Source: a virus
Virus record (IMG/VR): IMGVR_UViG_3300023174_003623
Span: 1 to 64,000 of that record
DNA length: 64,000 nt
Reading direction: 5' to 3' (one strand)
A program made the position numbers and the translations under genes. The notes beneath the pieces are model-generated. The model did not search any database and was not told the origin of the DNA. It worked only from the letters and a program-made list of their open reading frames with translations. Of the stretch, positions 3,913 to 40,986 are shown piece after piece; position 1 is the first letter of the stretch; each line of letters begins with the position of its first letter.

Positions 3913-4584
3913 ATGAATATAATGCAAATAAGTTTAAATAATGAAATCTATCAACCTTTAGCAGACATTACTGCTAATAATAAAATGTTATATTGTGAGA
4001 AACATGGGTATCGTTTTTTCAATAAAACTAGTGGATTTACTTATAACAATACCATAAGTGATTTGGGATTTGAAAAAATTAAGATAATATTAGATCTTTT
4101 TGAAAAAATGCCCGATTTAGATTGGATACATTGGACTGGTTGTGATACAATGGTGACGAACTTTAATATCAGACTAGAAGACATCATTGATGAAGAATAT
4201 CATATGATAGTTTGTGTTGATGGAAATGGTATCAACGCAGATAGTTTTTTAATTAAAAATAGTCGTGTAGGTCGAGGTTTAATGCAATGGATACTCGATA
4301 ATATCGACACTTATAGAAATCATTGTTGGCTTGAACAACAGGCTATGATAGACTTTTATTTCAAGAATCCTCTTGGTAAAGATATAATTAAAATATTACC
4401 TCAAAGGGTAATGAATAGTTATTTACATGATTTATATCCACACGCAAAAGGTAAATATAATGTAGATAAAACTGGAAATAATGCTGAATGGGCAAAGGGC
4501 GATTTTATTTTACATTTACCCGCATTACCTCTACAGACAAGAATTGATGTTATGAAAGAATATGTAAATAAGGTGACACTATGA
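3913..4584 (+). CDS. Glycosyltransferase, GT34-like
   Basis: A 223-residue protein resembling the GT34 (GMA12/MNN10) galactosyl- or mannosyltransferase family with a GT-A fold. Residues 71-83 (WIHWTGCDTMVTN) correspond to the strand and metal-binding DxD-like site, with a single Asp. INADSFLIKNS is the usual acceptor-loop region, EQQAMIDF follows, and GDFILHLPALP near the C-terminus matches the GDF-x-x-H motif. It overlaps the next gene by 4 bases and is the first gene of the sugar island, so it probably adds a sugar to the host surface or to a phage structure. The donor is unknown. Confidence 0.75.
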   Translation: MNIMQISLNNEIYQPLADITANNKMLYCEKHGYRFFNKTSGFTYNNTISDLGFEKIKIILDLFEKMPDLDWIHWTGCDTMVTNFNIRLEDIIDEEYHMIVCVDGNGINADSFLIKNSRVGRGLMQWILDNIDTYRNHCWLEQQAMIDFYFKNPLGKDIIKILPQRVMNSYLHDLYPHAKGKYNVDKTGNNAEWAKGDFILHLPALPLQTRIDVMKEYVNKVTL

Positions 4585-5885
4585 AAGATGTATATGATTT
4601 GGTAAATTCCTATAAGAAAGATAAAACTTGGATTGCAGGACAAGATTTTGTTCCTTATGCTGGTCCCTTTTTTGATGAAAAAGAACAAATTGCAGCCATT
4701 GAGTGCATTCTTGATGGATGGTTAGTTATGGGTAAGAAGTCAATGGCTTTTGAAAGAAATTTTCCTAAGCAATTTGAAAAGACGCATGGAATCTTGACTA
4801 ACTCTGGTTCTTCTTCTAATCTTCTTATGATGTCTGCGTTGACTAGTAAGACGTTTGGGTGGCCTAAAGGGACTAAGGTATTGATGCCTATTGCTGGATT
4901 TCCTACAACACTAAACCCTACATTACAGGTTGGGTTTGAACCTGTGTTTGTTGATATTGAAATTGATAGTTTGAATCTAGATATTGATAAGGTCGAGCAG
5001 GTATTGCTTAAAAATAAAGATATCAAGATTATTACGTTCGCCCATGTATTGGGTAATCCGCCAAACATGGATCGATTGATGGATTTAGTTCATCATTATC
5101 GTTTAATTTTACTTGAAGACTGTTGTGATGCTCTTGGAAGTACTTACAATGATAAGCCACTAGGATCTTTTGGTATGATGGCAAGTTGTTCTTTCTATCC
5201 TGCACACCATATGACGATGGGTGAGGGTGGATTTGTAGCCTGTTCAGATCCTGTAACTGAAGATGTGCTTAGAAGTTTCCGAGAATGGGGTCGTGGTTGT
5301 TATTGTGTTGGTCCAGAAGCTAATAAATTGAAGTGTGGTACCTGTAAGAAGCGGTTTTCTAACTGGGTTCCTTCAATGCCTAATGAAATTTTCGATCATA
5401 AGTTCATTTATAATGAAATTGGATACAATTTAAAGCCTATTGAATTACAGGCAGCAATGGGATTGGAACAAATTAAAAAATTACCTGAAATTCATGCGTT
5501 ACGTCGTCGAAATTATAGTCTTTTGATGAAAATTTATGAAAAATATGAAGAATTCTTTCATCTTCCAAGGGCTACAAAAGGTGCGAATCCAAGTTGGTTT
5601 GCTTTTCCGTTGACAATTCGTAAGGGTGCGCCATTTACTCGTACTCAGATCGTGGATTTTTTGGAAAATCACTTGATTCAGACTCGACCATACTTTGCGG
5701 GTAACATTATGCTACAGCCTGCGTATAGTCATTTGATGAATCAGGACGAAGCAAGAGATAATTTTCCTGTTGCAACTCATACAATGACTCATTCTTTTTT
5801 CCATGGCACCAGTCCTGTGATTACGGAAGAGCAAATTAAGTATATTGGTGAATGTGTAGATAAGTTTTTATCGCAATTTATTTAA
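4581..5885 (+). CDS. rfbH: RfbH/E1-like sugar 3-dehydratase (PLP, Fe-S)
   Basis: A 434-residue member of the DegT/DnrJ/EryC1/StrS fold. The PLP-binding Lys of aminotransferases is replaced by His: SFYPAHHMTMGEGG at residues 204-217. This is typical of 3-dehydratases. C182-X57-C240-X-C242 followed by C252 and C255 resembles the [2Fe-2S] motif of E1 (CDP-4-keto-6-deoxyglucose 3-dehydrase), and KRFSNW and FDHKFIYNEIGYNLKP match the E1 family. Such enzymes remove the 3-OH of an NDP-4-keto-6-deoxyhexose on the way to 3,6-dideoxyhexoses. E1 also needs a reductase partner, which I do not see in the window and which the host may supply. The sugar nucleotide used here is inferred from the family. Confidence 0.88.
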   Translation: MKDVYDLVNSYKKDKTWIAGQDFVPYAGPFFDEKEQIAAIECILDGWLVMGKKSMAFERNFPKQFEKTHGILTNSGSSSNLLMMSALTSKTFGWPKGTKVLMPIAGFPTTLNPTLQVGFEPVFVDIEIDSLNLDIDKVEQVLLKNKDIKIITFAHVLGNPPNMDRLMDLVHHYRLILLEDCCDALGSTYNDKPLGSFGMMASCSFYPAHHMTMGEGGFVACSDPVTEDVLRSFREWGRGCYCVGPEANKLKCGTCKKRFSNWVPSMPNEIFDHKFIYNEIGYNLKPIELQAAMGLEQIKKLPEIHALRRRNYSLLMKIYEKYEEFFHLPRATKGANPSWFAFPLTIRKGAPFTRTQIVDFLENHLIQTRPYFAGNIMLQPAYSHLMNQDEARDNFPVATHTMTHSFFHGTSPVITEEQIKYIGECVDKFLSQFI

Positions 5886-5897
5886 AGGTGATTGAAT

Positions 5898-6704
5898 ATG
5901 AATAATAAAGAATTCAAGTGTGTTGATATTCTTACCAATATGATCGAGAATTATGGTCTGATTGGTATCAAGACTTCTTTTGAGGATGAAGGTGCTCTTT
6001 TTAATGATACTATTCGTTTAAAAGAAATCTGTAATCAGGCGCAGACTAAACTTGTTCTGAAGATTGGTGGTCCAGAAGCCATTCGCGATATTAAAGATGC
6101 TTTGATTATCGGTGTCAAAGGTCTGGTTGCGCCTATGGTAGAGTCTGAGTTTGGTCTTAAAAAATTTATTCAATCTGCACATTCTCATATTCCATCTGAT
6201 GTTCTTTCTTCACTTCATCTTAATGTAAATTTAGAAACAATAACTGCCGCAGAACATGTAGAAGACATTCTGAGTATTCCTGAAGCTGAGTCTTTGTATG
6301 GGGTTACAGTAGGAAGAGTAGATCTAGTCTCTTCCATGAACAAAGATAGAACTTATGTAAATAGCGACGAAGTATATTCATTGGTGAAGACAGTGTTTGT
6401 AAAGGCGAAGAAGCGAGGACTTAAGTTATGTCTTGGTGGTGCAGTATCTGTAGAATCTTTGCCCTTTCTTAAACGATTGAATGAAGAGGGATTGTTGGAT
6501 AAGTTTGAGACACGATATGCTATTTACGATCCTGCAATTGCTCTAAAAAATTTACCAAAGGCTCTTGCTATGGGTCAGTCGTTTGAACTTGAATGGTTAC
6601 AGTGTAAGTATGAATATTATACTGCGCTAGCCAATCAAGACATAAATCGAATTCAAATGATAGAATCTCGTATGAATGAATCGAAGACGACAAAGACCAA
6701 ATGA
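5898..6704 (+). CDS. HpcH/HpaI aldolase-like protein
   Basis: A 268-residue protein like the HpcH/HpaI aldolase and citrate lyase beta family, a PEP/pyruvate-binding TIM barrel. Visible features are KLVLKIGGPEAIRD, VAPMVESEFGLKKF (the metal-binding Glu region), NLETITAAEHVEDI and VTVGRVDLVSS. The family cleaves or forms C-C bonds using pyruvate or acetyl donors. I chose ATG 5898 over the TTG at 5892 because AAAGGTG (5884-5890) is 7 bases upstream. It lies between RfbH and a pyruvate-type TPP enzyme, so a role in a branched or acid sugar is likely, but the substrate cannot be read. Confidence 0.75.
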   Translation: MNNKEFKCVDILTNMIENYGLIGIKTSFEDEGALFNDTIRLKEICNQAQTKLVLKIGGPEAIRDIKDALIIGVKGLVAPMVESEFGLKKFIQSAHSHIPSDVLSSLHLNVNLETITAAEHVEDILSIPEAESLYGVTVGRVDLVSSMNKDRTYVNSDEVYSLVKTVFVKAKKRGLKLCLGGAVSVESLPFLKRLNEEGLLDKFETRYAIYDPAIALKNLPKALAMGQSFELEWLQCKYEYYTALANQDINRIQMIESRMNESKTTKTK

Positions 6705-7087
6705 GTTATAATAAAAAGGTACTTGACGAAGAATCGCGAATTCTAGCTATAGATTTTGACGGAGTAATTCACACTAATCAATATGGATTTCATGACGGAA
6801 CAATCTATGGCACTCCAATTGCAGGTTCACTTGAATCTATTAAAGAACTAGCCAATTCATATGATTTAGTAATTTATACTGCAAAGGCGAAAAAAGATAG
6901 ACCGCTTGTTAATGGAAAGACGGGTACTGAGTTGGTATGGGAATGGCTCAAAAAATATAACATAGATATTTATATTAAGAATGTAACTGCTGAAAAACCA
7001 AGATGCATTTGCTATATAGATGATAAAGCTATTCGATTTGTTGACTGGCACCAAACTATGATCAATCTTAAACAAATTATAAAATAA
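6701..7087 (+). CDS. Small HAD-family phosphatase
   Basis: A 128-residue protein of the haloacid dehalogenase superfamily. Motif I is IDFDGVIHT with the nucleophile pair Asp18 and Asp20, VIYTAK fits motif II, and YIDDKAIRF fits the acidic motif IV. There is no large cap domain, so a small phosphorylated sugar or another accessible phosphate is a plausible substrate. It overlaps the aldolase-like gene by 4 bases and is followed after 1 base by the TPP enzyme, so these three probably work together. Confidence 0.75.
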   Translation: MSYNKKVLDEESRILAIDFDGVIHTNQYGFHDGTIYGTPIAGSLESIKELANSYDLVIYTAKAKKDRPLVNGKTGTELVWEWLKKYNIDIYIKNVTAEKPRCICYIDDKAIRFVDWHQTMINLKQIIK

Positions 7088-7088
7088 A

Positions 7089-8840
7089 ATGAAAATATCT
7101 GACATTGTAATTCAATTCCTAGAATCAAAAGGAATTGAACATGTATTCGTCGTTTCTGGCGGTGGATGTATTCACCTAGTGGATTCTCTAGGTAAATCCA
7201 AACTCAATTATATCTGTATGCATCATGAGCAGGCAACTGCTATGGCAGCAGAGGGATATGCTCGTATTAAAAATGATGTCGCTGCATGTTTGGTTACCAC
7301 TGGTCCGGGTGGTACAAATGCACTGACGGGTGTTTTAGGTTGTTGGTTAGACAGCATTCCTACTATTTTTATTTCCGGTCAAGTATCATTGTCTCAGATA
7401 GCAAGAGGTACTGGTTGTCGTCAAATAGGTGACCAAGAATTTGATATTATCTCTACAGTAAAATCTATGACAAAATACTGTAAGATGATTGAGAATAAGA
7501 ATGAAATTCTTTATGAATTGAACAAGGCTTATGATATAGCTAAATCAGGGCGTCCCGGTCCTGTATGGTTAGATATTCCTTTAGATATTCAAGGTTCATT
7601 TGTCGAGGAACATGAGTTAATTCCTGTGCAGTCGTTTATAGAAGAACGATCTGTGATTCAAGAATCAGATATATTACAGTTTAAGATATTATTAGAAAAA
7701 TCTAAAAAGCCATTGATTATATGTGGCAATGGGATTCGTCTTTCAAATAGTGTAGACCTATTAAATTTTTTCATTAAATCCAATGAGATTCCTGCATTGA
7801 CTGGAGTTCATTCTGGTGTTGATTGTCTAGATAACACTTATGACTATTATGCCGGAAGGATCGGACTTCTAGGAAATTTATCATCAAATAAGATAGTTCA
7901 AGAAGCGGATTTGTTGATTGTGCTTGGCTCTAGATTAAATGTAAAGATGACTGGTTATGATCCAAGTTTGTTTGCGCCGAATGCTAAAAAGATTTTTGTA
8001 GATATTGACATGAATGAAATTCGTAAACATAAGTTGAATATTGACCTAAAAATTAATGCGGATTTAAATATATTTTTAAATACTATAATTAAGCAACAAT
8101 ACAAATTAGAATTTGAAGATTGGCGTGAATTTGTACGCACTGCTAGGTCTGAACAAAAATATGTATATCCTAAACATATCAATTTAAAGTCTCCTGCAAG
8201 TGTATATTACTTTCTATATCTTTTTCAGAATTATATGAAAGATCTGCCAATCATAACTAGCAATGGAACCGCACATGTAGCTACTCTTCAGACTATTCAA
8301 CTAAAAAATAAACAGAGAATGTTTACTAACGTTGGTTGCGCTAGTATGGGTTATGGATTACCTGCTGCAATTGGTGCATCTTTTGCGTTGAATAAATCAC
8401 CTGTTATCTGTATAGAGGGTGATGGTAGTTTACAGATGAACATACAAGAACTACAGACTCTTGTACACTATAAGCTTCCCGTGGTAATGATTGTGATTAA
8501 TAATGATGGCTATATCTCGATTAAGATAACTCAACAGAATTTCTTTAGTGGTTATGAAGTTGCAAGTGGAAAAGAAAGCGGAGTATCGTTTCCATCCTTA
8601 GAAAAGCTAAGTGATGCATATGGTATAGAGTATCACAAAATAACTCGTAACTCAGAAATTGATAATGTATTGTTCGATATATTTTCTTCTGATATTTCTG
8701 GTCCAATTATTTGTGAAGTGTTTACGCATCCAAATGAAAAGCACGAACCAAAGGTAATTCATAAAGGTATAGATAAAGATGGGAAAATTATTCCCGGTGA
8801 TTTAACTAATATGTTCATTTCAGAAACGTTTGATAATTAA
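7089..8840 (+). CDS. Acetolactate synthase-like TPP enzyme
   Basis: A 583-residue enzyme with the full acetolactate synthase architecture. The N-terminal Pyr domain has the catalytic Glu47 in HHEQATAMAAEGYAR and GPGGTNALTG. A central FAD-type domain contains VLGSRLNVKMTG. The C-terminal PP domain has VGCASMGYGLPAAIGA and the TPP motif GDGSLQMNIQEL through NNDGY. Such enzymes decarboxylate pyruvate and pass the acetyl unit to an acceptor. In an RfbH-containing sugar cluster the best-known parallel is YerE, which adds a two-carbon branch to CDP-4-keto-3,6-dideoxyglucose in yersiniose synthesis. That substrate is an inference. A stand-alone amino-acid enzyme is less likely, since no IlvN, C or D is nearby. 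Confidence 0.85.
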   Translation: MKISDIVIQFLESKGIEHVFVVSGGGCIHLVDSLGKSKLNYICMHHEQATAMAAEGYARIKNDVAACLVTTGPGGTNALTGVLGCWLDSIPTIFISGQVSLSQIARGTGCRQIGDQEFDIISTVKSMTKYCKMIENKNEILYELNKAYDIAKSGRPGPVWLDIPLDIQGSFVEEHELIPVQSFIEERSVIQESDILQFKILLEKSKKPLIICGNGIRLSNSVDLLNFFIKSNEIPALTGVHSGVDCLDNTYDYYAGRIGLLGNLSSNKIVQEADLLIVLGSRLNVKMTGYDPSLFAPNAKKIFVDIDMNEIRKHKLNIDLKINADLNIFLNTIIKQQYKLEFEDWREFVRTARSEQKYVYPKHINLKSPASVYYFLYLFQNYMKDLPIITSNGTAHVATLQTIQLKNKQRMFTNVGCASMGYGLPAAIGASFALNKSPVICIEGDGSLQMNIQELQTLVHYKLPVVMIVINNDGYISIKITQQNFFSGYEVASGKESGVSFPSLEKLSDAYGIEYHKITRNSEIDNVLFDIFSSDISGPIICEVFTHPNEKHEPKVIHKGIDKDGKIIPGDLTNMFISETFDN

Positions 8841-8861
8841 TGATTCAGAAAAGGAAATATA

Positions 8862-9656
8862 ATGAAAATTGCAGTCATAGGATCTAATGGATTTGTTGGT
8901 AGAAATGTATTCAATTTTTTAAAATTAAAAAATCATAATGTACAAGGTCTAAATCGAAATAACATTGATTTATTAGATCCAAAACAAGTTAACTTTTGGT
9001 TAAAAAGCAATCGACCAAATATTATTATTAATTGTGCTGCTATTATGAAAGATAATAATAGTATAAATGATTGTAGAAATAATCTTGCAATTTTTATTAA
9101 TTTATTTAATAATGCACATTTATTTGATAAATTTATAGATACAGGTTCTGGTGCTGAATTTGATAGAACAACAAATATTGAAAATGCATCAATTGATAAA
9201 TTATTTGATTCGATTCCCTTAGACAGTTATGGATTTGGGCAAAACATCAAATCTCGTATGTGTCGCGAAAGAGAAAATTTTTATACATTAAGAATTTTTA
9301 ATTGTTTTGGTCGAGGTGAATTGAATACTAGAATTATTCCCAAATTTCTTACTTCTAAAAATACATTTAAAATTTTTGATGATAGATATTTTGACTATTT
9401 TGGTATACAAGATTTAAATGCAGTTGTTGAGCATTATGTAGACAATGATGTTTTTTTTAAAGATATAAACACAGTTTATATGAAAAAAGTTAAAATATCA
9501 GAAATGTTAAAACTGTATTGTGAAATACATAATATTTCGGTTAATAATTTTGAAATAGAATCTGTATCTAATTTAAATTATACTGGAGATGGTACTTTAT
9601 TAAATAATTTAGGTTTAAAATTATTAGGCCTTGAAGAGTGTTTAAAGAGATATTAA
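8862..9656 (+). CDS. SDR-type sugar reductase or epimerase
   Basis: A 264-residue short extended SDR. GSNGFVGRN at residues 8-16 is the NAD(P)-binding glycine motif, NCAA follows strand 4, and the protein has the length of RmlD-like or fucose-synthase-like reductases. The usual YxxxK is altered: Tyr in DSYGFGQNIKSR is followed by Gln at +4, with Lys at +7, so catalysis may be changed. AAAGGAAA lies before the ATG. It probably reduces or epimerises a keto sugar made by the preceding genes. The base composition here is even more AT-rich than in genes 4-7 of the island. Confidence 0.7.
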   Translation: MKIAVIGSNGFVGRNVFNFLKLKNHNVQGLNRNNIDLLDPKQVNFWLKSNRPNIIINCAAIMKDNNSINDCRNNLAIFINLFNNAHLFDKFIDTGSGAEFDRTTNIENASIDKLFDSIPLDSYGFGQNIKSRMCRERENFYTLRIFNCFGRGELNTRIIPKFLTSKNTFKIFDDRYFDYFGIQDLNAVVEHYVDNDVFFKDINTVYMKKVKISEMLKLYCEIHNISVNNFEIESVSNLNYTGDGTLLNNLGLKLLGLEECLKRY

Positions 9657-9657
9657 A

Positions 9658-10452
9658 ATGTATACAATTAATAAATGTTTAGCGTGTGGATCTAAAAATA
9701 TTGTAATTAAATCTACAAAACTAGCTAGGTTTGTTGCTTGGAAAACATCGAATACCCCTATGTCTGAGGATATAGATATTGAAGGTTTACAATGCAACGA
9801 TTGTTCATATGTTGGTTCTAATCATAGATTTACCATTCAAGAAGAACATAACTTGTACAATCAATACAGAGGGCCAGAATATAATTCTATTCGTTATGAA
9901 TGTGAACCAAATTATATTAAAATAGATAAATTTATTAAAACTAATGAATATTTTTTAATAAGAAAGACTGGAATTGATATATTGGTTGAAAAAAATATTG
10001 ACACCAATGATATTAAATCATTATTAGATTATGGTGGTGAAGCAGGCTCTATGATACCATCTATCTTAAATAAAGCAAAAAAATACGTTTTCGATATTAG
10101 TGATGTACCGGTTCAATCTAATGTTATTAAATTAAAACAAATAGATCTCAATAATACATTTGATTTTGTTATGTGTTGTCATGTATTAGAACATGTATCA
10201 GATTTAGATACATTTATTAGCAATTTTAAAAAAGTTATTAATAAAAATACATGGATATATTTTGAAGTGCCTAACTACCCAAATCCATTTATTGGGAAAT
10301 TTCACGAACATATTAATTTTTTTAATAAAAAATCATTTACTTCGTTTTTAGTAAGAAATGAGTTTTGTATAAAAGATACATATGAATATAACATTGATGT
10401 TGATATGCATCATTTTAATAATTTGTGTATGATGGTAAAATTAAATGAATAA
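9658..10452 (+). CDS. Sugar C-methyltransferase-like protein
   Basis: A 264-residue class I SAM methyltransferase. The N-terminus has a Cys pair (CLACGS, residues 8-13) and LQCNDCSYVG, a zinc-ribbon-like unit seen in NDP-hexose C-methyltransferases. LDYGGEAGSMIP is the SAM-binding glycine loop, and FDFVMCCHVLEHVSD is motif II with post-I features. The C-terminal predicted domain is short compared with the roughly 400-residue TylCIII type, so full C-methyltransferase function is uncertain. It sits 1 base after an SDR gene and overlaps the next SDR by 8 bases, so it is probably part of one sugar pathway. Confidence 0.7.
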   Translation: MYTINKCLACGSKNIVIKSTKLARFVAWKTSNTPMSEDIDIEGLQCNDCSYVGSNHRFTIQEEHNLYNQYRGPEYNSIRYECEPNYIKIDKFIKTNEYFLIRKTGIDILVEKNIDTNDIKSLLDYGGEAGSMIPSILNKAKKYVFDISDVPVQSNVIKLKQIDLNNTFDFVMCCHVLEHVSDLDTFISNFKKVINKNTWIYFEVPNYPNPFIGKFHEHINFFNKKSFTSFLVRNEFCIKDTYEYNIDVDMHHFNNLCMMVKLNE

Positions 10453-11401
10453 AATATTAATAATTGGCGGTGCTGGATATGTAGGATCTCCTTTATCTAT
10501 TGAATTAGATAAAAGAGGACATGATGTTTCCATAGTAGATTTACTTTGGTTTGGTAATAATTTACCAAATCATTTAAAAAATAAAGTGCAAAAAATTGAT
10601 GCATTAGATTTAACAGTTAATGATTTAAAAATATTTGACACTATAATTTTTGTTGCAGGTTTATCTAATGATCCTATGGCAGATTATTCTCCTTCTAAAA
10701 ATTTTGTTGCTAATTCAGCAACACCAGCATATCTTGCTTATATTGCAAAAAAAGCTGGTGTTAAAAGAATGATTTATGCAAGTAGTTGTTCTGTGTATGG
10801 TTATACAGTAGATAAATGTTTTGATGAGACTGGTCCTACCAACTCAATATATCCTTATGGAATATCTAAGTTGCAAGGTGAGAATGCAGTTATGCAATTA
10901 GTCGATGATTCCTTTTCTGTCATCTCCCTTAGAAAAGGAACTGTATCTGGCGTTAGTTCTAGGATGAGATTTGATTTAGTAGTAAATGCAATGTTTAAAA
11001 CAGCTTTAACATCTAGTACTATATTTGTAAATGATCCTTCCGTATGGAGACCTATTTTAGCACTTAAAGATTGCATTTCTGCATATATATGTGCGGTAGA
11101 ATCTGATATTAAAGTTTCTGGAATTTTTAATATTGCTTCGGATAATTACACTGTAAATCAAATAGCAAACATTGTTAAAGATACTATAGAAACCGAAAAA
11201 AATATTAAGGTGAATATTATTAATAATAATATTAAAGACGTTAGAAATTATAAAGTTGATTGTAATAAAGCTAAACAAATTTTAGCATTTTCCCCCTTGA
11301 ATAATGTTGAATTAATTGTAAAAGATCTTTTATCATATAATGATTTTGGAGATATGGAAAATTCATTGTTTTATAACATTAAAACGTTTTCTAATTTATA
11401 A
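10445..11401 (+). CDS. NAD-dependent sugar epimerase/dehydratase
   Basis: A 318-residue extended SDR. GGAGYVGSPL (residues 8-17) binds NAD(P), SSCSVYGY carries the Ser of the active site, and YGISK (Tyr138, Lys142) is a complete catalytic pair. The overall pattern is like UDP-glucose 4-epimerase and related dehydratases, and VWRPILALKD matches the sugar-binding part. It is the last gene before a promoter at 11418, so it may end the first transcription unit of the island. The substrate cannot be told. Confidence 0.8.
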   Translation: MNKILIIGGAGYVGSPLSIELDKRGHDVSIVDLLWFGNNLPNHLKNKVQKIDALDLTVNDLKIFDTIIFVAGLSNDPMADYSPSKNFVANSATPAYLAYIAKKAGVKRMIYASSCSVYGYTVDKCFDETGPTNSIYPYGISKLQGENAVMQLVDDSFSVISLRKGTVSGVSSRMRFDLVVNAMFKTALTSSTIFVNDPSVWRPILALKDCISAYICAVESDIKVSGIFNIASDNYTVNQIANIVKDTIETEKNIKVNIINNNIKDVRNYKVDCNKAKQILAFSPLNNVELIVKDLLSYNDFGDMENSLFYNIKTFSNL

Positions 11402-11417
11402 TAAATAAAGAAAAATC

Positions 11418-11446
11418 TTTACATTGATAATGTAATTAGTTATAAT
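11418..11446 (+). promoter_or_regulatory. Sigma70-type promoter with 17-nt dyad
   Basis: TTTACA at 11418-11423 and TATAAT at 11441-11446 are 17 bases apart. A perfect inverted repeat TTACATTGATAATGTAA (11419-11435, arms of 7, centre of 3) covers the -35 box and much of the spacer, which is where a repressor would act. It would drive the gene at 11462 and then gmd, the ColD-like gene and perhaps pqqA. Confidence 0.75.
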
Positions 11447-11461
11447 AATGAGAATGTTAAA

Positions 11462-11812
11462 ATGATTAATATAAAAGTTGATGAAGCATATGCTTTTGAC
11501 ATGCTTAGTGTTCTAGATATAAAAAAGAAAAATTCTCCAAAAGATCAGTGTAATTTTGATACAATGTCTTGTGATATTGAAATTCAGATTGGATCTAAAT
11601 TGTTCAAACAAATTTTGAATTCAAATGTATATTCTCAAATGATTACGGTAAATCAAATCATTTATGATTTGATTGACGCGATAAGAAAAGGTAACTTACA
11701 TCTCGATGCTAGAGTTATTGATGATGCTAATACTGACCGTTTTAAAATAAAACAAAAATTACAAAGCGAATTCTTTCTTAATGAATTGGTTGAGAATAAA
11801 ATACAAAATTAA
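11462..11812 (+). CDS. Unknown protein of the sugar island
   Basis: A 116-residue soluble protein with no membrane segment and no motif that I recognise. It begins MINIKVDEAYAFDMLSVLDI and has a mostly helical look. It is the first gene after a strong promoter and is 15 bases upstream of gmd, so it may assist the nucleotide-sugar enzymes or be unrelated. Small proteins of similar appearance occur beside sugar genes in surface-polysaccharide loci. I recall this only in general terms. Confidence 0.65.
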   Translation: MINIKVDEAYAFDMLSVLDIKKKNSPKDQCNFDTMSCDIEIQIGSKLFKQILNSNVYSQMITVNQIIYDLIDAIRKGNLHLDARVIDDANTDRFKIKQKLQSEFFLNELVENKIQN

Positions 11813-11827
11813 ATATAGAAGGAAATT

Positions 11828-12862
11828 ATGAAAAAGGCGATAATTACTGGTGTTACAGGGCAAGATGGTTCATATTTAGCTGAATTTTTAATTGAAAAGG
11901 GTTATGAAGTTCATGGCACTATTCGTAGAACTAGTGACCGTGATCATAAAAATTTAACCAAAATTAAAAATCAAATAATTTTTCATCAAACTGATTTAAC
12001 AGATTATAATTCAATATCTCGCTGTATTGAAAACATTTCCCCAGATGAAATTTATAACTTAGCGGCTCAAAGTCATGTTAAATTAAGTTTTGACTTACCT
12101 CTTAACACATCTGATGTTAATGCTTTAGGGCCACTTAGAATACTTGAAGCTATACGCAATCTTAAACCGAATACACGTTTTTATCAGGCTAGTACTTCTG
12201 AACTATATGGTGTAGTTGACCATGCACCTCAAAATGAAAATACAGTATTTAAACCAGCTAGCCCATATGGTATAGCTAAACTATTTGCTCATTGGTCAGT
12301 AGTAAACTATCGTTTTGGTTATAATATATTTGCGTGTAATGGTATACTTTTCAATCATGAAAGTCCTCGGCGTGGAGATATATTTGTAACAAAAAAAATT
12401 ACAAAAGCATTTGCAAAAATATTTTTAGATATAAATGCTGGATATGACCATACACCGGTTCAATTGGGTAATTTAGATAGCATGAGAGATTGGGGACATG
12501 CTAAAGATTATGTAGAAGCTATGTGGTTAATGATGCAAAAAGATACGCCAGATGATTATGTAATTAGCACTCAAATTCAATATTCGATTAGAGACTTTTG
12601 CAAAATGGCAGCTGAGTATTTTAATATGGATCTTGAATGGGAAGGCAAAGGAAAACAAGAACAGGCAATAGATCGTAAGACAGGAAAAATTATTGTAACG
12701 GTAAATCCTGAATTTTATAGACCGGTTGATGTAGTAAATTTGCTTGGTAATTCTTCGAAGGCGCGGAATATATTAAATTGGAAACCTAAATACGATTTGA
12801 ATAAGATGGTAGAAGAAATGTGTAAATATGATTTAGATGAAGAGGTAAAAAAATATGCTTAA
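11828..12862 (+). CDS. gmd: GDP-mannose 4,6-dehydratase
   Basis: A 344-residue protein matching Gmd along its full length. GVTGQDGSYLAEFLIEKGY (residues 8-26) binds NADP, YNLAAQSHVKLSF follows, STSELYG contains the catalytic Ser/Glu region, and PYGIAK holds the Tyr-x3-Lys pair. FNHESPRRG and RDWGHAKDYVEAMW are Gmd signature stretches. It converts GDP-D-mannose to GDP-4-keto-6-deoxy-D-mannose, precursor of fucose, rhamnose, perosamine and colitose. AGAAGGAAAT precedes the start. It overlaps the ColD-like gene by 8 bases, which suggests a shared pathway. Confidence 0.95.
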   Translation: MKKAIITGVTGQDGSYLAEFLIEKGYEVHGTIRRTSDRDHKNLTKIKNQIIFHQTDLTDYNSISRCIENISPDEIYNLAAQSHVKLSFDLPLNTSDVNALGPLRILEAIRNLKPNTRFYQASTSELYGVVDHAPQNENTVFKPASPYGIAKLFAHWSVVNYRFGYNIFACNGILFNHESPRRGDIFVTKKITKAFAKIFLDINAGYDHTPVQLGNLDSMRDWGHAKDYVEAMWLMMQKDTPDDYVISTQIQYSIRDFCKMAAEYFNMDLEWEGKGKQEQAIDRKTGKIIVTVNPEFYRPVDVVNLLGNSSKARNILNWKPKYDLNKMVEEMCKYDLDEEVKKYA

Positions 12863-14015
12863 TTGGCCTTTAATGCAAAACGCGATCAAGTTTACTGATC
12901 GACTAAAGTTATGTAAGTTTCTTTTAACGTCTGATCGTTATACAAATGGACCTAAAGTTCGTGAATTTGAAAAGATGTGGTCGGATTGGATTGAAACTAA
13001 ACATTCACTAATGGTCAGTTCAGGTTCTACGGCAAATTTTTTATTACTAGCTGCTATCAAAGAAAAACATGGATTGAAAGAAGGAGATAAAGTACTAGTA
13101 CCAGCTTGCACTTGGGTAACTAATGTTAGTCCTATTATTCAACTTGGATTAATTCCAATCTTTTGTGATGTTAATTTTGAAAATTTTAGTTTTAATATTC
13201 CTGAACTTGAAAAAATTAAAATCAAGCATGATATTAAAGCTATCTTTATTACTCATCTTCTAGGTTTTAGCGCAGATAATGAAAAATATAAGGAAATATT
13301 TCCAAATGCTATTATCTTAGAAGATGTATGCGAAAGTCATGGTTGTCGGAGTGATAGTGGAGAACTCCGTGGACGAGATAATGGAACATTTAGTTTTTAT
13401 TTCGGTCATCACATGACTACAATTGAAGGTGGTATGGTTACCACAAATGATGACGATCTATATGAACTTATGCGTATGAAGAGGAGTCATGGTTTAGCGC
13501 GTGAATCTGGAAACTTATCTAAGTATACTTCTAAATATCCAGATATTCATCCACAGTTTTTATTTGCTACAGATGGATATAATTTTAGAAGCACTGAAAT
13601 TAATGCTATTCTAGGTATGCAACAACTACCAAGATTAAATGGATTTATTGACACTAGAAAGAAAAATTTTAGTATATTTGTAGATCTATTAGATGAGTAT
13701 AAAGATTTATTTTATCCTCTTGTAGATCAAAAAGGTAATAGTAATTATGCTTTTCCATTTATTTGTAAAAATCCAAACATTAAACATAAACTAATGCAAT
13801 TATTTGATGCAAATAAAATAGAAAATCGTCCTATTGTTAGTGGAAATCTATTAAAGCAACCTTTCTTAAAAGGCTATGATTTTGCAATTAAATCTAAATC
13901 TTATAATGCTGATGTGTTAAATGATAACGGATTATATATTGGGAATAGTCAATTTGTAAATCCAAATCAAATTTATAAATTGTTTGAATTAATAGCCAAA
14001 GAATTTAAAAAATAA
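12855..14015 (+). CDS. colD: ColD-like GDP-4-keto-6-deoxymannose 3-dehydratase
   Basis: A 386-residue DegT-fold PLP enzyme. In place of the aminotransferase Lys it has His: FYFGHHMTTIEGGM at residues 181-194, matching the His188 region of ColD. SGSTANFLLL and LEDVCESHG are the cofactor-binding parts, and DGYNFRSTEINAILGMQQL is the family C-terminal signature. It lacks the Fe-S cysteines of the RfbH-like protein at 4581, as ColD does. ColD uses PLP and glutamate to make GDP-4-keto-3,6-dideoxymannose from the Gmd product. Pairing with gmd supports this. A ColC-type reductase is not clear, but one of the SDRs could serve. Confidence 0.85.
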   Translation: MLNWPLMQNAIKFTDRLKLCKFLLTSDRYTNGPKVREFEKMWSDWIETKHSLMVSSGSTANFLLLAAIKEKHGLKEGDKVLVPACTWVTNVSPIIQLGLIPIFCDVNFENFSFNIPELEKIKIKHDIKAIFITHLLGFSADNEKYKEIFPNAIILEDVCESHGCRSDSGELRGRDNGTFSFYFGHHMTTIEGGMVTTNDDDLYELMRMKRSHGLARESGNLSKYTSKYPDIHPQFLFATDGYNFRSTEINAILGMQQLPRLNGFIDTRKKNFSIFVDLLDEYKDLFYPLVDQKGNSNYAFPFICKNPNIKHKLMQLFDANKIENRPIVSGNLLKQPFLKGYDFAIKSKSYNADVLNDNGLYIGNSQFVNPNQIYKLFELIAKEFKK

Positions 14016-14025
14016 AGGATATATT

Positions 14026-14706
14026 ATGTTATTTGCATACAGAAATTTTAAAAGAAATAAAATGGTAAATCTTTCTGCTACTAGCATTAAGCATTTTGTT
14101 CCAGACGCTAAAATTTATTGTGTTACATTTTATGAAAATAGCCCAGATGAGTATGATGATCAAGAGCCTCTTTTACCATTTATAGAGGAGCGAAAAGTCA
14201 AAACCAAGTATCCCAATACAAATGGTAAACCTCATGATCATCCTGATGTGCATGCTACAAGTGGACAAGGGAGTCCTGATACTTCTAAATATTTTGCAGA
14301 AGGTTATAATGAAATTTGGAAATGGCTTCGCGATACACAAGAAAAAGTTTTAATGCTAGGTGAAGATGAATTCTATACTACAGGCGAAGTATTAAAAGAT
14401 TTTATAGATAATCAAGATAAATATTGGGCAGCATTTGGTTCTTGGTGTTGGTGGGGATATGAAGAAAAATGGGCAAATGGTACCTGTATATGTTTTGACC
14501 TAAAAACTTTAGATGGTTTATTTCCGTTAGACGAAAATGGGCCAGCATTTGTTGAAGGATTACTTTATCATACATTATGTCGTATCCCTAGAGAACATAG
14601 ATATATAATTGAAAAAAGAACTTTTGAGAATTATCATGGAGATGGGATGAGAACAAATTCTTCCGCTAAAATGGAAGAAGAACTTATAAAAGCCGGTATA
14701 ATTTAA
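14026..14706 (+). CDS. Putative glycosyltransferase, GT-A-like
   Basis: A 226-residue protein without a clear family match. VLMLGEDEFYTT (about residues 106-117) resembles the strand and acidic metal site of GT-A glycosyltransferases, and FGSWCWWGYEEKWANGT is followed by an acidic ENGPAFVEG stretch. Length and position after nucleotide-sugar enzymes fit a transferase that uses the made sugar. Other enzymes acting on sugars cannot be excluded. It is followed after 16 bases by pqqA, which may share its transcript. Confidence 0.5.
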   Translation: MLFAYRNFKRNKMVNLSATSIKHFVPDAKIYCVTFYENSPDEYDDQEPLLPFIEERKVKTKYPNTNGKPHDHPDVHATSGQGSPDTSKYFAEGYNEIWKWLRDTQEKVLMLGEDEFYTTGEVLKDFIDNQDKYWAAFGSWCWWGYEEKWANGTCICFDLKTLDGLFPLDENGPAFVEGLLYHTLCRIPREHRYIIEKRTFENYHGDGMRTNSSAKMEEELIKAGII

Positions 14707-14708
14707 TC

Positions 14709-14716
14709 AAAGGAGA
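14709..14716 (+). promoter_or_regulatory. Strong ribosome-binding site of pqqA
   Basis: AAAGGAGA lies 6 bases before the ATG at 14723. It is among the best Shine-Dalgarno matches in the window and supports translation of the very short pqqA frame. Confidence 0.85.
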
Positions 14717-14722
14717 CATTAT

Positions 14723-14794
14723 ATGTGGACTACACCAACATTTGAAGACTTCCGTTTGGGATTTGAAATTTCACTTTACATCAACAATCGATAA
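14723..14794 (+). CDS. pqqA: PQQ precursor peptide PqqA
   Basis: A 23-residue peptide whose sequence fits PqqA, the ribosomal precursor of the cofactor pyrroloquinoline quinone. It has the family length, an MW start, Pro5, Phe7, Arg11, and the core GFEISLYINNR (residues 13-23). Glu15 and Tyr19 are in the exact positions that PqqE cross-links in the short Klebsiella-type PqqA. No pqqB, C, D or E is in the window, so host enzymes would be needed to mature it. A perfect ribosome-binding site lies upstream and a hairpin terminator (14817-14859) downstream. It probably raises PQQ supply for host alcohol, methanol or sugar dehydrogenases during infection. The frame is too short for usual gene callers. 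Confidence 0.88.
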   Translation: MWTTPTFEDFRLGFEISLYINNR

Positions 14795-14816: not shown

Positions 14817-14859
14817 ACCCACGACGCCTCTCTATAGAAGCGCACCAGCGTGGGTTTTT
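14817..14859 (+). terminator. Intrinsic terminator after pqqA
   Basis: ACCCACG (14817-14823) pairs perfectly with CGTGGGT (14849-14855), with partial pairing inside the 25-base loop, and TTTTT runs from the end of the stem. It ends the sugar-island and pqqA transcript before the tmRNA gene. Confidence 0.8.
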
Positions 14860-14920: not shown

Positions 14921-15262
14921 AATAAATAATATTGTTGGTATGGTCGTATGAAGTAAAGGGAAGGTATTCTGGACGCGGGTGCGAATCCCGCCACCTCCAC
15001 CAAAAGCATATTGTAAATATGATGCTGTCGAAGCACACTGGTTCAGCAATCAATAAATGTTTCGTGAGTATACTTTTGATGGGGGTGACTAGATTCGACA
15101 GGGTAAGATACTGATACAGACGACTCGGTAGGCGATGACCGTAAATCAAGCAAAAAATATAAAAGCCAATGATGACTTTTACGGAGATTATGCACTAGCT
15201 GCATAATTCTTCTGGGGTTTCGCTAGCTGTCCTTATTACCCAATCAGCTAGCACTTTACACA
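14921..15262 (+). ncRNA. ssrA: Circularly permuted (two-piece) tmRNA
   Basis: The 3' acceptor part comes first: T arm GCGGGTGCGAATCCCGC and CACCTCC-A-CCA ending at 15002, with CCA encoded. A 78-base spacer follows, then the 5' part GGGGGTGACTAGATTCGACA from 15081. GGGGGTG (15081-15087) pairs with CACCTCC (14992-14998) as a 7-bp acceptor stem with a G3:U70 wobble, the alanine identity mark. The tag frame at 15150-15206 reads AKNIKANDDFYGDYALAA and stop. After it, GGGT, GCTAGCTG, ACCC and CAGCTAGC (15215-15252) form an H-type pseudoknot. This order is the permuted gene form, processed into two RNAs in the cell. It would rescue stalled ribosomes and tag products for proteolysis. Outer ends are approximate. 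Confidence 0.9.
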
Positions 15263-15750: not shown

Positions 15751-16581
15751 ATGTTATCTTTCTTTAATTTTCTTTTAGAAGAATTAGATTTAACTGATAA
15801 TGATAAAAATAAATCAGATGCTATTGGAAAAGTTCATGAATTTCTTGTTCATAGAAATTTAGGTGGAAAGGCTACTCCACAAGAAAGATTAGCTCATAAA
15901 AAACATATACAATTTATAGGTAAACAACGTTATAATGCCGCTGTAATAAGAGCACAACATGCGTCAGATCATATTGAAAAACATCTTATAGGAAGAAAGA
16001 ATGTTGCTCGTGTGGAGAGAGTTTCTGGTACAGGTAACCCACAAGATCCATCAGATTTGCATATACACTTTGCTAATGGTAAAAAGATTGGTATTAGTTT
16101 AAAAACTACAGAAGGCGATTCTAAAGCAGTAAAACTTTCTAATCCCGGTCTTACTGCTGCGAATAGCATTCATGGAGAAAAAATTGAAAGAGGAGCCGAT
16201 ACTCAACAATATATGTGGGATATTGCACATAGAATTAATACAGGATTTAATGATGCTTCTCCAGAAGAAAAACATGACTATTTAAAAAAACATGTTTTTA
16301 GAGTACCAGACACCCATGAAGTAAATGGTGTACATACTATAAATCAAAATAAAATGCCAGCTACTGCACATTTTAGATATCATGAACATTTTACACCTTT
16401 AATTAAAGATACCGAAAATATTACAACAAAAAGAACTGGGTACACTGTTAATTTTTTTCATCCTTCATCAAAAACACCTGTTGTAACATTAAGAATAAAA
16501 CGTAAAGATGCTAGTCCAAGATCCTCAATTAAGGCTTTAGTTACTACCAATATTATTCCAAAATCTAATTATAAAAGATAA
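15751..16581 (+). CDS. Putative packaged protein with nuclease-like core
   Basis: A 276-residue protein. The start MLSFFNFLLEELD looks like the capsid-targeting leader of T4 internal proteins, with LEE as a possible gp21 cleavage point. Residues near 88-112 read DPSDLHIHF, then GKKIGISLKTTEG, which is the D-x(n)-(D/E)xK-like arrangement of PD-(D/E)XK nucleases with Ser in the usual acidic place. KLSNPGLTAANS follows. The rest is basic and His-rich. I infer a protein carried in the head and delivered with DNA, perhaps related to a nuclease fold, active or not. A candidate late promoter lies 27 bases upstream. Confidence 0.65.
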   Translation: MLSFFNFLLEELDLTDNDKNKSDAIGKVHEFLVHRNLGGKATPQERLAHKKHIQFIGKQRYNAAVIRAQHASDHIEKHLIGRKNVARVERVSGTGNPQDPSDLHIHFANGKKIGISLKTTEGDSKAVKLSNPGLTAANSIHGEKIERGADTQQYMWDIAHRINTGFNDASPEEKHDYLKKHVFRVPDTHEVNGVHTINQNKMPATAHFRYHEHFTPLIKDTENITTKRTGYTVNFFHPSSKTPVVTLRIKRKDASPRSSIKALVTTNIIPKSNYKR

Positions 16582-32201: not shown

Positions 32202-32275
32202 CTGCGCGTAGCTCAGCTGGATAGAGCATTCGGCTTCTACCCGAATGGTCGGGGGTTCGAATCCCTCCGCGCAGG
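32202..32275 (+). tRNA. tRNA-Arg(UCU)
   Basis: The acceptor stem CTGCGCG pairs with CGCGCAG, the D arm is AGCTCAGCTGGATAGAGC, and the anticodon arm TTCGG-CTTCTAC-CCGAA gives anticodon TCT. The T arm is GGGGG-TTCGAAT-CCCTC. CCA is not encoded (GCA follows). It reads AGA and AGG, common in this AT-rich genome. Confidence 0.9.
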
Positions 32276-32324
32276 CAATTAATAATAATATTCCTGATTG
32301 ATAGCAAAAAGCAAGAAAATAAAT

Positions 32325-32409
32325 GCGAATGTGGCGGAACGGTTTACGCACAAGACTTAAAATCTTGCGGGATTATCCCATATGGGTTCGAATCCCATCA
32401 TTCGTACCA
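32325..32409 (+). tRNA. tRNA-Leu(UAA)
   Basis: A class II tRNA with a long variable arm. The acceptor GCGAATG pairs with CATTCGT (G-U at the end). The anticodon arm CAAGA-CTTAAAA-TCTTG gives TAA. CCA is encoded. It reads UUA, the main Leu codon of the window. Confidence 0.9.
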
Positions 32410-32417
32410 AATACAAC

Positions 32418-32493
32418 GCCCCCGTAGCTCAGCGGTTAGAGCAGACGGCTTATATCCGTCCGGTCGGTGGTTCAATTCCATCCGGGGGTACCA
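32418..32493 (+). tRNA. tRNA-Ile(UAU)
   Basis: The acceptor GCCCCCG pairs with CGGGGGT, and the anticodon arm GACGG-CTTATAT-CCGTC gives TAT. CCA is encoded. It reads AUA directly, without the lysidine change that bacteria normally use on a CAU anticodon. A UAU Ile tRNA is uncommon in bacteria and frequent in phages with many AUA codons. Confidence 0.88.
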
Positions 32494-32503
32494 AATAAAA
32501 TAT

Positions 32504-32596
32504 GGGTGAGTTGATGCTATGGTGTGTGCATCTCCAGACTGTAAATCTGGTCCCTCTGGGTAAACATTGTCAGTTCGACTCTGACCTCACCCACCA
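32504..32596 (+). tRNA. tRNA-Tyr(GUA)
   Basis: A class II tRNA. The acceptor GGGTGAG pairs with CTCACCC, the anticodon arm CCAGA-CTGTAAA-TCTGG gives GTA, a long variable arm follows, and CCA is encoded. It reads UAU and UAC. Confidence 0.88.
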
Positions 32597-32604
32597 TATA
32601 AAAT

Positions 32605-32678
32605 GCGGGATTGGTATAGGGGCTGTGCCTTAGCCTTCCAAGCTAAAGAGACCGGTTCAAATCCGGTATCCCGCTCCA
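32605..32678 (+). tRNA. tRNA-Gly(UCC)
   Basis: The acceptor GCGGGAT pairs with ATCCCGC, and the anticodon arm TTAGC-CTTCCAA-GCTAA gives TCC. The T arm is CCGGT-TCAAATC-CGG type and CCA is encoded. It reads GGA and GGG. Confidence 0.88.
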
Positions 32679-32682
32679 TTTC

Positions 32683-32757
32683 GGGATTGTGGTGAAATGG
32701 TATCACAACGGACTTTTAATCCGTAAATTTTGGGTTCAAGTCCCAACGATCCCACCA
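32683..32757 (+). tRNA. tRNA-Lys(UUU)
   Basis: The acceptor GGGATTG pairs with CGATCCC, and the anticodon arm ACGGA-CTTTTAA-TCCGT gives TTT. The body is somewhat like Gln tRNAs, but the anticodon reads AAA and AAG. CCA is encoded. It is the last tRNA of the cluster of six. Confidence 0.85.
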
Positions 32758-34041: not shown

Positions 34042-34224
34042 ATGAAAAAATTTATAATCAAAGATTCTCTTGGTGGTGTATTTGAAGAGGATGTGGAATT
34101 TGTTATTCCATCGCACTCTAACCTAGAACAGGTTTGTGAATCATTTACACTTTTTCTAAAAGCATGTGGTTATAATCTTGATAACCAATATGTTACAATA
34201 GATCATCATGATGACTTAAGATGA
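34042..34224 (+). CDS. Small unknown protein
   Basis: A 60-residue acidic protein. I chose ATG 34042 (MKKFIIKDS) because it lies 2 bases after the previous stop, while the in-frame ATG at 34030 lies inside that gene. It overlaps the HAD gene by 4 bases (ATGA). No motif is recognised. Confidence 0.55.
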   Translation: MKKFIIKDSLGGVFEEDVEFVIPSHSNLEQVCESFTLFLKACGYNLDNQYVTIDHHDDLR

Positions 34225-34952
34225 AAACATATATATTTGATGTTGATGGTGTATTGGCTACACCTAATGAACCAATTGAATCAAATTTTATGCGTATGTT
34301 TGAGCATTGGATGCTTAAAAAAGACGTATACATTTGTACTAACAATACTTATCAAAACATTTTACCTAGACTTGGACGTAGAATTTTAGATAATTGTCAA
34401 GCAGTTTTTACTTGTGGTGGCAATTCTATATGGAGAGGAAATAAAGAACATGTACGAAGTGTTTGGCGTCCCTCATTTGAATTGACCTCTTTTCTTGAAT
34501 CTTTGCTGAAAACCTCAGAATTTAAAATGAGAGTTGGGCCAAATATTGAATATCGCACAGGAATGATTAACTTTTCTTTAGTTGGAAAAACTGCAACAGA
34601 AGATGAGATTAAACGTTATGTACAATGGGATAAGCACGCAAAAGAAAAGAAAGCTTTTATAGAAAGTATTAAATCTTTTTTTCCACAATTGAGTGTGACT
34701 CTTGGTAGCGATACTTCTATTGATATTTGTGAAAAATCTAATGACAAATCACAAATTTATCAATTTTTTAAAACTAAAACTGATGTTACTTCTGTTTTTC
34801 ATTCTACATATGGTACAAATAAAGAAATGCAAGAATGTATAAAAACCCTAACAGAAAATTATGTTTTAATTAATCAAATAGAAATTAAATCTATATTTAA
34901 TACTATTATTAGTAATAGTCCTGAAGATACAAAAAAATTATTGAGATTGTAA
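34221..34952 (+). CDS. HAD-family, phosphomannomutase-like protein
   Basis: A 243-residue HAD protein. IFDVDGVLATP has the nucleophile and acid Asp residues, and CTNNT fits motif II. The cap region NIEYRTGMINFSLVGKTA followed by WDKHAKEKKAFIESI resembles the substrate cap of eukaryote-type phosphomannomutases (RxGMxNxSPxGR). SLTLGSDTSIDI-type residues follow. It may interconvert mannose phosphates, which would feed GDP-mannose and Gmd. Without comparison, a general HAD phosphatase remains possible. Confidence 0.65.
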   Translation: MKTYIFDVDGVLATPNEPIESNFMRMFEHWMLKKDVYICTNNTYQNILPRLGRRILDNCQAVFTCGGNSIWRGNKEHVRSVWRPSFELTSFLESLLKTSEFKMRVGPNIEYRTGMINFSLVGKTATEDEIKRYVQWDKHAKEKKAFIESIKSFFPQLSVTLGSDTSIDICEKSNDKSQIYQFFKTKTDVTSVFHSTYGTNKEMQECIKTLTENYVLINQIEIKSIFNTIISNSPEDTKKLLRL

Positions 34953-34964
34953 ACTAAAAATATA

Positions 34965-34993
34965 TTGACTTTTATTTTTGTGTGTATTACAAT
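34965..34993 (+). promoter_or_regulatory. Sigma70-type promoter
   Basis: TTGACT at 34965-34970 and TACAAT at 34988-34993 are 17 bases apart. It serves the small gene at 35047. A perfect dyad, CTAGTG-ACCAA-CACTAG (35007-35023), begins about 7 bases after the expected transcript start and could be an operator or an mRNA hairpin. Confidence 0.72.
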
Positions 34994-35046
34994 TGATAAA
35001 TGGGTGCTAGTGACCAACACTAGAATTATTGAACTGGAGATATAAT

Positions 35047-35235
35047 ATGAGTAAAACCGAAAAACTTCTTCGCGCACTTGAACGTGGTCAGCATCTTACT
35101 GCTCGTCAGATTACTGCTCGCTTCAAGCTTGTTAATCCTCGTGCCGCTGTTTCGAATATTCGCATTCGTCATGGCGTTAACGTTGAAATTAACAAGGGTA
35201 AGAACGGCTCTAAGTATAGTGTTGCTGTAGGTTAA
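35047..35235 (+). CDS. Small helix-turn-helix-like protein
   Basis: A 62-residue basic protein. The start at 35047 is fixed by GGAGAT at 35035-35040. LTARQITARFKLVNPRAAVS looks like the two helices of a winged-helix DNA-binding unit, and a beta wing (NVEINKGKNGSKYSVA) follows. Codon use is more GC-rich (CGC, CTT, GGT) than in neighbours, a sign of high expression. It has its own promoter and a strong terminator, and a dyad in its leader suggests autoregulation. The target is unknown. Confidence 0.7.
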   Translation: MSKTEKLLRALERGQHLTARQITARFKLVNPRAAVSNIRIRHGVNVEINKGKNGSKYSVAVG

Positions 35236-35261
35236 TTGCTAGACTTAGATTAGGTTCTAAT

Positions 35262-35290
35262 AAGAGGGTCTTTCGAGACCCTCTTTCATT
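35262..35290 (+). terminator. Intrinsic terminator with TTCG loop
   Basis: AAGAGGGTCT (35262-35271) pairs fully with AGACCCTCTT (35276-35285) over a TTCG tetraloop, followed by a short T-rich tract. It closes the one-gene unit of the HTH protein. Confidence 0.85.
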
Positions 35291-35307
35291 TTGTTAAAGA
35301 GGATATT

Positions 35308-40910: not shown

Positions 40911-40986
40911 GCTGACGTAGCTCAGTTGGTAGAGCTACTGATTTGTAATCAGTGGGTCGGGAGTTCGATTCTCTCCGTCAGCACCA
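40911..40986 (+). tRNA. tRNA-Thr(UGU)
   Basis: The acceptor GCTGACG pairs with CGTCAGC, the D arm is AGCTCAGTTGGTAGAGCT, and the anticodon arm ACTGA-TTTGTAA-TCAGT gives TGT. CCA is encoded. It stands alone, about 8 kb from the other tRNAs, with its own promoter. It reads ACA and ACG. Confidence 0.92.

What the first reader, a model, noticed from the sequence alone, without database searches (positions are those of the whole stretch)
14709..14794. Phage-encoded PQQ precursor peptide (PqqA)
A 23-codon frame with a perfect ribosome-binding site encodes a peptide of exactly the short PqqA length. Glu15 and Tyr19 are in the positions that PqqE joins, and the GFEISLYINNR core, Trp2, Pro5 and Arg11 fit the family. 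PQQ is the cofactor of methanol, alcohol and glucose dehydrogenases. A phage carrying only the substrate peptide, without pqqB-E, would raise the limiting precursor and rely on host enzymes. This would be a one-gene auxiliary metabolic function that gene callers miss because of its size. I do not know whether it has been described in phages.
Basis: partly seen in the sequence, partly recalled or inferred. Interest (0 to 1): 0.93.

Follow-up and report, generated by a model that had tools for sequence, protein, structure and literature searches.

The report
Phage gene for PQQ precursor peptide
A large bacterial virus carries a real 23-amino-acid gene for the raw material of the bacterial redox cofactor PQQ but none of the enzymes that process it, and the same lone gene sits unannotated in the cultured viruses of methanol-eating bacteria checked here and in more than a hundred environmental virus contigs.

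Summary
Window 14723-14794 (+) encodes MWTTPTFEDFRLGFEISLYINNR, above the curated cut-offs of both PqqA models (PF08042, TIGR02107) and far above chance (49.5 bits; best of 30 random windows 12.3). It has a Shine-Dalgarno site and a terminator-like hairpin, and lies in a T4-like phage record of 154.8 kb that has no pqqB-E and no PQQ alcohol dehydrogenase.

The nearest relative keeps the peptide (21 of 22 core residues; about 11 synonymous against 3 non-synonymous changes), but about 4 kb away, so it is selected for its product. The pattern is general. Methylophages P19250A, Venkman, MEP301, MEP401, MEP402 and Melnitz, from several unrelated groups, all carry it; none of the records inspected annotates it. 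At least 120 IMG/VR contigs carry it, against two short contigs with pqqB and none with pqqE. Methylophilaceae hosts likewise multiply only pqqA (median 5 copies against one pqqE).

Best reading: the phage supplies the substrate consumed one per PQQ, and host PqqB-E finish the cofactor for alcohol oxidation. That step is inferred; the host is unidentified. Phage PqqA was reported in 2020 (Lake Baikal, with methanol dehydrogenase), so the kind is known. The lone, recurrent, overlooked form appears new.

The parts
14711..14715 (+). Shine-Dalgarno AGGAG, 7 bases before the ATG
   Evidence: sequence
14723..14794 (+). pqqA: 23-aa PQQ precursor peptide MWTTPTFEDFRLGFEISLYINNR (Glu15 and Tyr19 would become PQQ)
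   Evidence: PF08042 33.2 bits and TIGR02107 34.4 bits, both over cut-off; chance control; purifying selection against the relative
14818..14859 (+). terminator-like hairpin CCCACG...CGTGGG followed by TTTTT, just after pqqA
   Evidence: RNA fold -16.3 kcal/mol, z = -2.3; the simple consensus scan did not list it, its loop being longer than that scan allows
14026..14706 (+). 226-aa gene of unknown function directly upstream (16 bases before the pqqA start), likely co-transcribed; conserved in the relative, where pqqA is not next to it
   Evidence: no Pfam or PHROG hit
14942..15206 (+). permuted (two-piece) tmRNA gene directly downstream; neighbour, not part of the pqqA function
   Evidence: RF04321 146 bits, RF01850 beta_tmRNA 116 bits; ARAGORN

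Best explanation
The frame is a functional pqqA gene and works as a substrate-only auxiliary metabolic gene. During infection the phage makes extra PqqA; host PqqD presents it to host PqqE, which joins Glu15 and Tyr19, and host proteases, PqqB and PqqC complete PQQ. Shown here: a genuine, selected pqqA in a phage without the enzymes, recurring alone across unrelated phages whose known hosts are methylotrophs, and amplified alone in those hosts. Inferred: expression in infection, processing by host enzymes, higher PQQ, benefit to the phage.
For: PqqA models over cut-off; chance control. The phage record has no pqqB-E by tblastn (the searched set includes the window and L010-L014, i.e. the whole record), no pqqE-family hit and no PQQ alcohol dehydrogenase. 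Relative IMGVR_UViG_3300006875_000114 keeps the peptide with pS 0.78 and pN 0.06, though it lies about 4 kb away. Of 50,697 phage records, true phage hits are only methylophages plus one Venkman-related environmental genome, although Pseudomonas, Klebsiella and Acinetobacter phages abound. At least 120 viral contigs with pqqA, against 2 short ones with pqqB and 0 with pqqE. Of 60 Methylophilaceae genomes, pqqA has 1-12 copies (median 5) and pqqE mostly one; the same was published for cultured strains (PMC4109929). Overexpressing pqqA alone or with pqqB is reported to raise PQQ (PMC7936290), and added PqqA peptide is converted to PQQ by cell extract (cited in PMC9851590).
Against: No expression or metabolite data. 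Host of this phage unidentified: the nearest bacterial peptides are only about 70% identical, so a host with pqqBCDE is not shown. Enzymes, not only the substrate, can limit PQQ: the full pqqABCDE raises it far more than pqqAB does (PMC7936290). A relative with the upstream gene (L285 contig, 52 kb fragment) has no pqqA match, so the gene is not universal in the group.
Confidence: 0.75

Rival explanations
1. PqqA is made as a decoy that occupies host PqqD/PqqE, lowering or re-timing PQQ production, so that the phage shuts down rather than supports alcohol oxidation.
For: A lone substrate made in excess could titrate enzymes; no functional data exclude it.
Against: An inhibitor would not need both reacting residues. 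Glu15 and Tyr19 are kept in the window, in its relative, and in every isolate, the isolates having been found by BLAST rather than by the fixed pattern. Hosts themselves multiply pqqA, and more pqqA is reported to raise PQQ (PMC7936290). One contig pairs pqqA with a PQQ dehydrogenase.
Confidence: 0.08
2. The peptide is a PqqA that serves another purpose, for instance a different radical-SAM product or a direct role of the peptide in the phage cycle.
For: Weak radical-SAM matches exist in a few pqqA-bearing contigs, below the pqqE cut-off.
Against: Neither the window's record nor the isolates have such an enzyme by this search. The most common phage peptide is identical to the host one in Methylophilaceae genomes.
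Confidence: 0.07
3. A recently captured, neutral host fragment without function, or bacterial contamination of virus assemblies.
For: Methylophilaceae also carry free-standing pqqA copies away from pqqB-E, so the lack of pqqB-E alone does not prove viral origin of every contig.
Against: The window and its relative have T4-like genes around or beyond it. Isolate genomes of cultured phages carry it. 92 of 128 viral loci have a recognised phage gene nearby or share a gene with an isolate phage. Few changes alter the protein (pN/pS 0.25 over 124 distinct phage genes; window against relative 0.06/0.78).
Confidence: 0.05
4. A chance open frame that resembles PqqA.
For: Short frames are common in this A+T-rich window.
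Against: 49.5 bits against at most 12.3 in simulated windows; near-identical frame at a different position in the relative.
Confidence: 0.005

Closest known systems
Bacterial PqqA (PF08042, TIGR02107), e.g. in pqqABCDE operons
   Same: Length, Glu15-x3-Tyr19, Trp2, Pro5, Arg11, Gly13; scores over both curated cut-offs
   Different: In a phage, without pqqB-E; 107 of 117 bacterial loci fetched with a similar pattern have pqqB-E genes beside it
Lake Baikal methylotroph phage VP_266 (PMC7678222, 2020)
   Same: T4-like phage contig assigned to Methylophilaceae, encodes PqqA
   Different: Also encodes methanol dehydrogenase; the phage of this window has none. In 35 pqqA-bearing records searched only G013 (IMGVR_UViG_3300025120_009955) has such a dehydrogenase
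Unannotated pqqA in cultured OM43/LD28 phages P19250A, Venkman, MEP301, MEP401, MEP402, Melnitz
   Same: Lone pqqA with start and ribosome-binding site, TIGR02107 34-41 bits
   Different: Host-type core TEMRFGFEVTMYVMNK rather than FEDFRLGFEISLYINNR; mostly small genomes (Melnitz is a myophage). The four OM43-phage papers read do not mention phage pqqA
Multi-copy free-standing pqqA of Methylophilaceae (PMC4109929)
   Same: Only the substrate gene is multiplied; enzymes stay single copy
   Different: Chromosomal, not viral

Membership tests
PqqA | Match to curated PqqA models above cut-off | tested here: met
   PF08042 33.2 bits against 21.1; TIGR02107 34.4 against 20
PqqA | Glu and Tyr spaced by three residues in a short peptide | tested here: met
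   E15 and Y19 in a 23-aa frame
PqqA | Frame and reacting residues kept in a relative | tested here: met
   Relative contig found independently through the upstream gene: 21 of 22 core residues, 18 of 19 from Pro5 on
PqqA | Is cross-linked by PqqE with PqqD and becomes PQQ | not testable with these tools
   needs enzymes and mass spectrometry
Phage auxiliary metabolic gene | Lies in a genuine phage genome | tested here: met
   T4-like baseplate wedge, tail-tube cap, primase and ribonucleotide reductase proteins in the window; virus record G000
Phage auxiliary metabolic gene | Host origin of the gene | tested here: inconclusive
   For OM43-type phages the peptide is identical to the host version; for this phage the nearest bacterial peptide is about 70% identical
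Phage auxiliary metabolic gene | Host has pqqBCDE to use the peptide | tested here: inconclusive
   Host unknown; tmRNA resembles betaproteobacterial ones; 57 of 60 Methylophilaceae have pqqE
Phage auxiliary metabolic gene | Expressed during infection and changes host metabolism | not testable with these tools
   no transcript or metabolite data
Phage PQQ module with dehydrogenase (Baikal type) | PQQ alcohol/methanol dehydrogenase in the same phage | tested here: not met
   TIGR03075 finds nothing in the 154.8-kb record

The most novel reading that the evidence does not exclude
Supplying only the consumed substrate peptide of a cofactor pathway is a general, convergent strategy of phages of methylotrophs: unrelated phage lineages have each taken up pqqA and only pqqA because PQQ supply for alcohol oxidation becomes limiting once host transcription stops. 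It has been overlooked because a 23-codon gene is not called.
Probability: 0.6. Interest if true: 0.75.

Novelty: new member of a known kind. Interest (0 to 1): 0.62.

Why it matters
Methanol oxidation by OM43/LD28-type bacteria is a sizeable carbon flux in coastal and fresh water. If their phages keep it running by feeding one peptide into a host pathway, that is an unusually cheap metabolic takeover (72 bases) and can be tested in phage-host pairs already in culture. It also shows that gene calling by size hides real metabolic genes: a scan of PHROGs with two phage PqqA peptides found no family, and none of the seven phage records inspected here annotates the frame.

Tried and rejected
Host identification by nearest PqqA in sampled Burkholderiales and Gammaproteobacteria and by tmRNA: only about 70-75% matches, not decisive. 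Neighbour 15751-16581 and the DegT gene gave no viral relatives by that tool, although L284 carries both. 'Acinetobacter phage MD-2021a' was rejected as a phage example: its contig has complete pqqABCDE next to polyphosphate kinase, i.e. bacterial DNA. Conservation of W2, P5, R11, G13, F14, E15 and Y19 in the 120 IMG/VR contigs was not counted as evidence, because the search pattern fixed those columns. PDB search found no real relative.

Full report
WHAT IS THERE. The frame at 14723-14794 (+) reads MWTTPTFEDFRLGFEISLYINNR. AGGAG stands 7 bases before the ATG. It matches PF08042 (33.2 bits, cut-off 21.1) and TIGR02107 (34.4 bits, cut-off 20, an equivalog model). With a model built from 69 bacterial PqqA peptides the frame scores 49.5 bits. 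The next best frame of the whole window scores 4.8, and the best of 30 simulated windows of the same base-step composition scores 12.3. The frame starts 16 bases after the stop of a 226-aa gene of unknown function. A hairpin CCCACG...CGTGGG followed by TTTTT comes right after it (fold -16.3 kcal/mol, z = -2.3), so it looks like the last gene of a transcription unit. A permuted tmRNA gene follows at 14942-15206.

THE PHAGE. The window is the first 64 kb of a 154,777-base IMG/VR virus record. Baseplate wedge, tail-tube cap, T4-type primase, exonuclease and ribonucleotide reductase proteins mark a T4-like myophage. Acinetobacter PqqB, C, D and E found nothing by tblastn in the window or in the rest of the record (stretches). 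The pqqE model and the PQQ alcohol dehydrogenase model also found nothing. The record may be incomplete, so genes outside it cannot be excluded.

SELECTION. A relative was found independently through the 226-aa neighbour (75% identity). It keeps the order 116-aa gene, GDP-mannose dehydratase, aminotransferase, 226-aa gene, tmRNA, deaminase. Its pqqA, however, sits about 4 kb upstream, next to an S-adenosylmethionine decarboxylase gene. The peptides differ at one of 22 core residues (S17T) plus an extra Asn after Met. At DNA level there are about 11 synonymous changes (pS 0.78) and 3 non-synonymous ones (pN 0.06). Keeping the peptide while the gene changes place and third positions scramble means selection for the product. 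A more distant fragment with the 226-aa gene (G430, 52 kb) has no pqqA.

HOW COMMON. Tblastn over 50,697 phage records found PqqA in P19250A, Venkman, MEP301, MEP401, MEP402 and four Melnitz isolates, all phages of Methylophilales, and in an environmental podovirus from Manatee Spring whose primase is closest to Venkman's. The only other hits, labelled 'Acinetobacter phage', are bacterial contigs: the one inspected has the full operon. In the seven true phage records inspected the frame is not annotated on its own strand, yet each has a start codon and ribosome-binding site and TIGR02107 scores of 34-41 bits. MEP431-434, HIM624-A and Venkman EXVC038S are known names that I did not see in the collection, so 'all isolates' is not claimed. 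Between some of these phages pqqA is the only DNA that BLAST aligns in the stretches compared.

Every one has a PqqA frame and a start codon. Eight more came from a second pattern. None of these loci has pqqB-E, whereas 107 of 117 bacterial loci fetched with the second pattern do. Scans of the same collection for PqqB gave two short contigs (3.4 and 4.5 kb), and for PqqE none; the PqqE patterns rest on two sequences, so that negative is weaker. 92 of the 128 viral loci have a recognised phage gene nearby or share a gene with an isolate phage (families checked). Across 124 distinct phage genes pN/pS is 0.25; seven columns were fixed by the pattern and lower this figure artificially.

THE HOST SIDE. 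Sixty Methylophilaceae genomes carry 1 to 12 pqqA copies (median 5; 58 of 60 have more than one), while pqqE is single in nearly all. In one 1.28-Mb genome all three copies encode the same peptide and none has pqqB-E within 4 kb. That peptide is the commonest phage peptide. Multi-copy pqqA in Methylophilaceae is published (PMC4109929), and in a producing strain with five copies two are expressed far above the rest (PMC9851590). Hosts thus multiply the substrate gene and not the enzymes; the phages do the same. That fits chemistry: one PqqA is spent per PQQ, whereas the enzymes turn over (established pathway knowledge). Because hosts also hold free-standing copies, lack of pqqB-E alone does not prove that each contig is viral; the phage neighbours and the isolate genomes do that work.

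MECHANISM. Most likely the phage supplies PqqA so that host PqqD/PqqE/PqqB/PqqC keep making PQQ for alcohol or methanol dehydrogenase during infection. The restriction of phage hits to methylophages, although phages of Pseudomonas, Klebsiella and Acinetobacter (PQQ makers too, from general knowledge) are far more numerous, supports a tie to hosts that live on PQQ enzymes (inference). One contig, G013, holds both pqqA and a PQQ alcohol dehydrogenase (608 bits), as in the Baikal phages. Expression, processing and benefit are not shown. For this phage the host is unknown: the nearest bacterial peptides are about 70% identical and the tmRNA fits the betaproteobacterial model with modest matches to Burkholderiales genomes.

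NOVELTY. PqqA in a phage was reported in 2020 for Baikal population VP_266, with methanol dehydrogenase in the same populations (PMC7678222), and pqqA is listed among viral genes of a reservoir (PMC13188868). Four OM43-phage papers do not mention a phage pqqA (the single PQQ mention in PMC9004378 is a medium component). The window gene is therefore a new member of a known kind. What seems new is that the gene is usually alone, recurs in unrelated methylophages including cultured ones, and has been missed.

Noticed in passing
window 14942-15206: Permuted two-piece tmRNA gene, tag ANDDFYGDYALAA, fits the betaproteobacterial model; the relative L284 has one at the same place (tag ANDDIYEQEYALAA).
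   Followed up: partly
L284 1569-2067: In the relative, pqqA directly follows an S-adenosylmethionine decarboxylase (speD-like) gene, another unusual phage metabolic gene.
   Followed up: partly
G013 (IMGVR_UViG_3300025120_009955) 34049-35731 and 41887-41955: Virus contig with a PQQ alcohol/methanol dehydrogenase gene and pqqA about 6 kb apart, like the Baikal phages.
   Followed up: partly
L002 (CAKLQF020000010.1): Record named 'Acinetobacter phage MD-2021a' is probably bacterial: full pqqABCDE, polyphosphate kinase and nucleotidase genes in a 144-kb contig.
   Followed up: partly
window 4581-14015: Long sugar-biosynthesis cluster (two DegT-type aminotransferases, GDP-mannose dehydratase, epimerases, methyltransferase, thiamine-diphosphate enzyme), suggesting remodelling of a surface sugar or glycosylation.
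   Followed up: no
window 32202-32757 and 40911-40986: Six tRNA genes in a row (Arg, Leu, Ile, Tyr, Gly, Lys) plus one tRNA-Thr; three more (Asn, Trp, Cys) in the rest of the record.
   Followed up: no
G169, G236, G266 and other Methylophilaceae genomes: Streamlined 1.3-Mb genomes keep three pqqA copies; in G169 they are far from the single pqqE, an odd redundancy for minimal genomes.
   Followed up: partly
L005 2988-3072 against MW202481.1 2107-2190: pqqA is the only stretch of DNA (90.6% over 85 bases) that megablast aligns between the fetched 6-kb Venkman stretch and the Manatee Spring phage, as if the gene moves between phages by itself.
   Followed up: no
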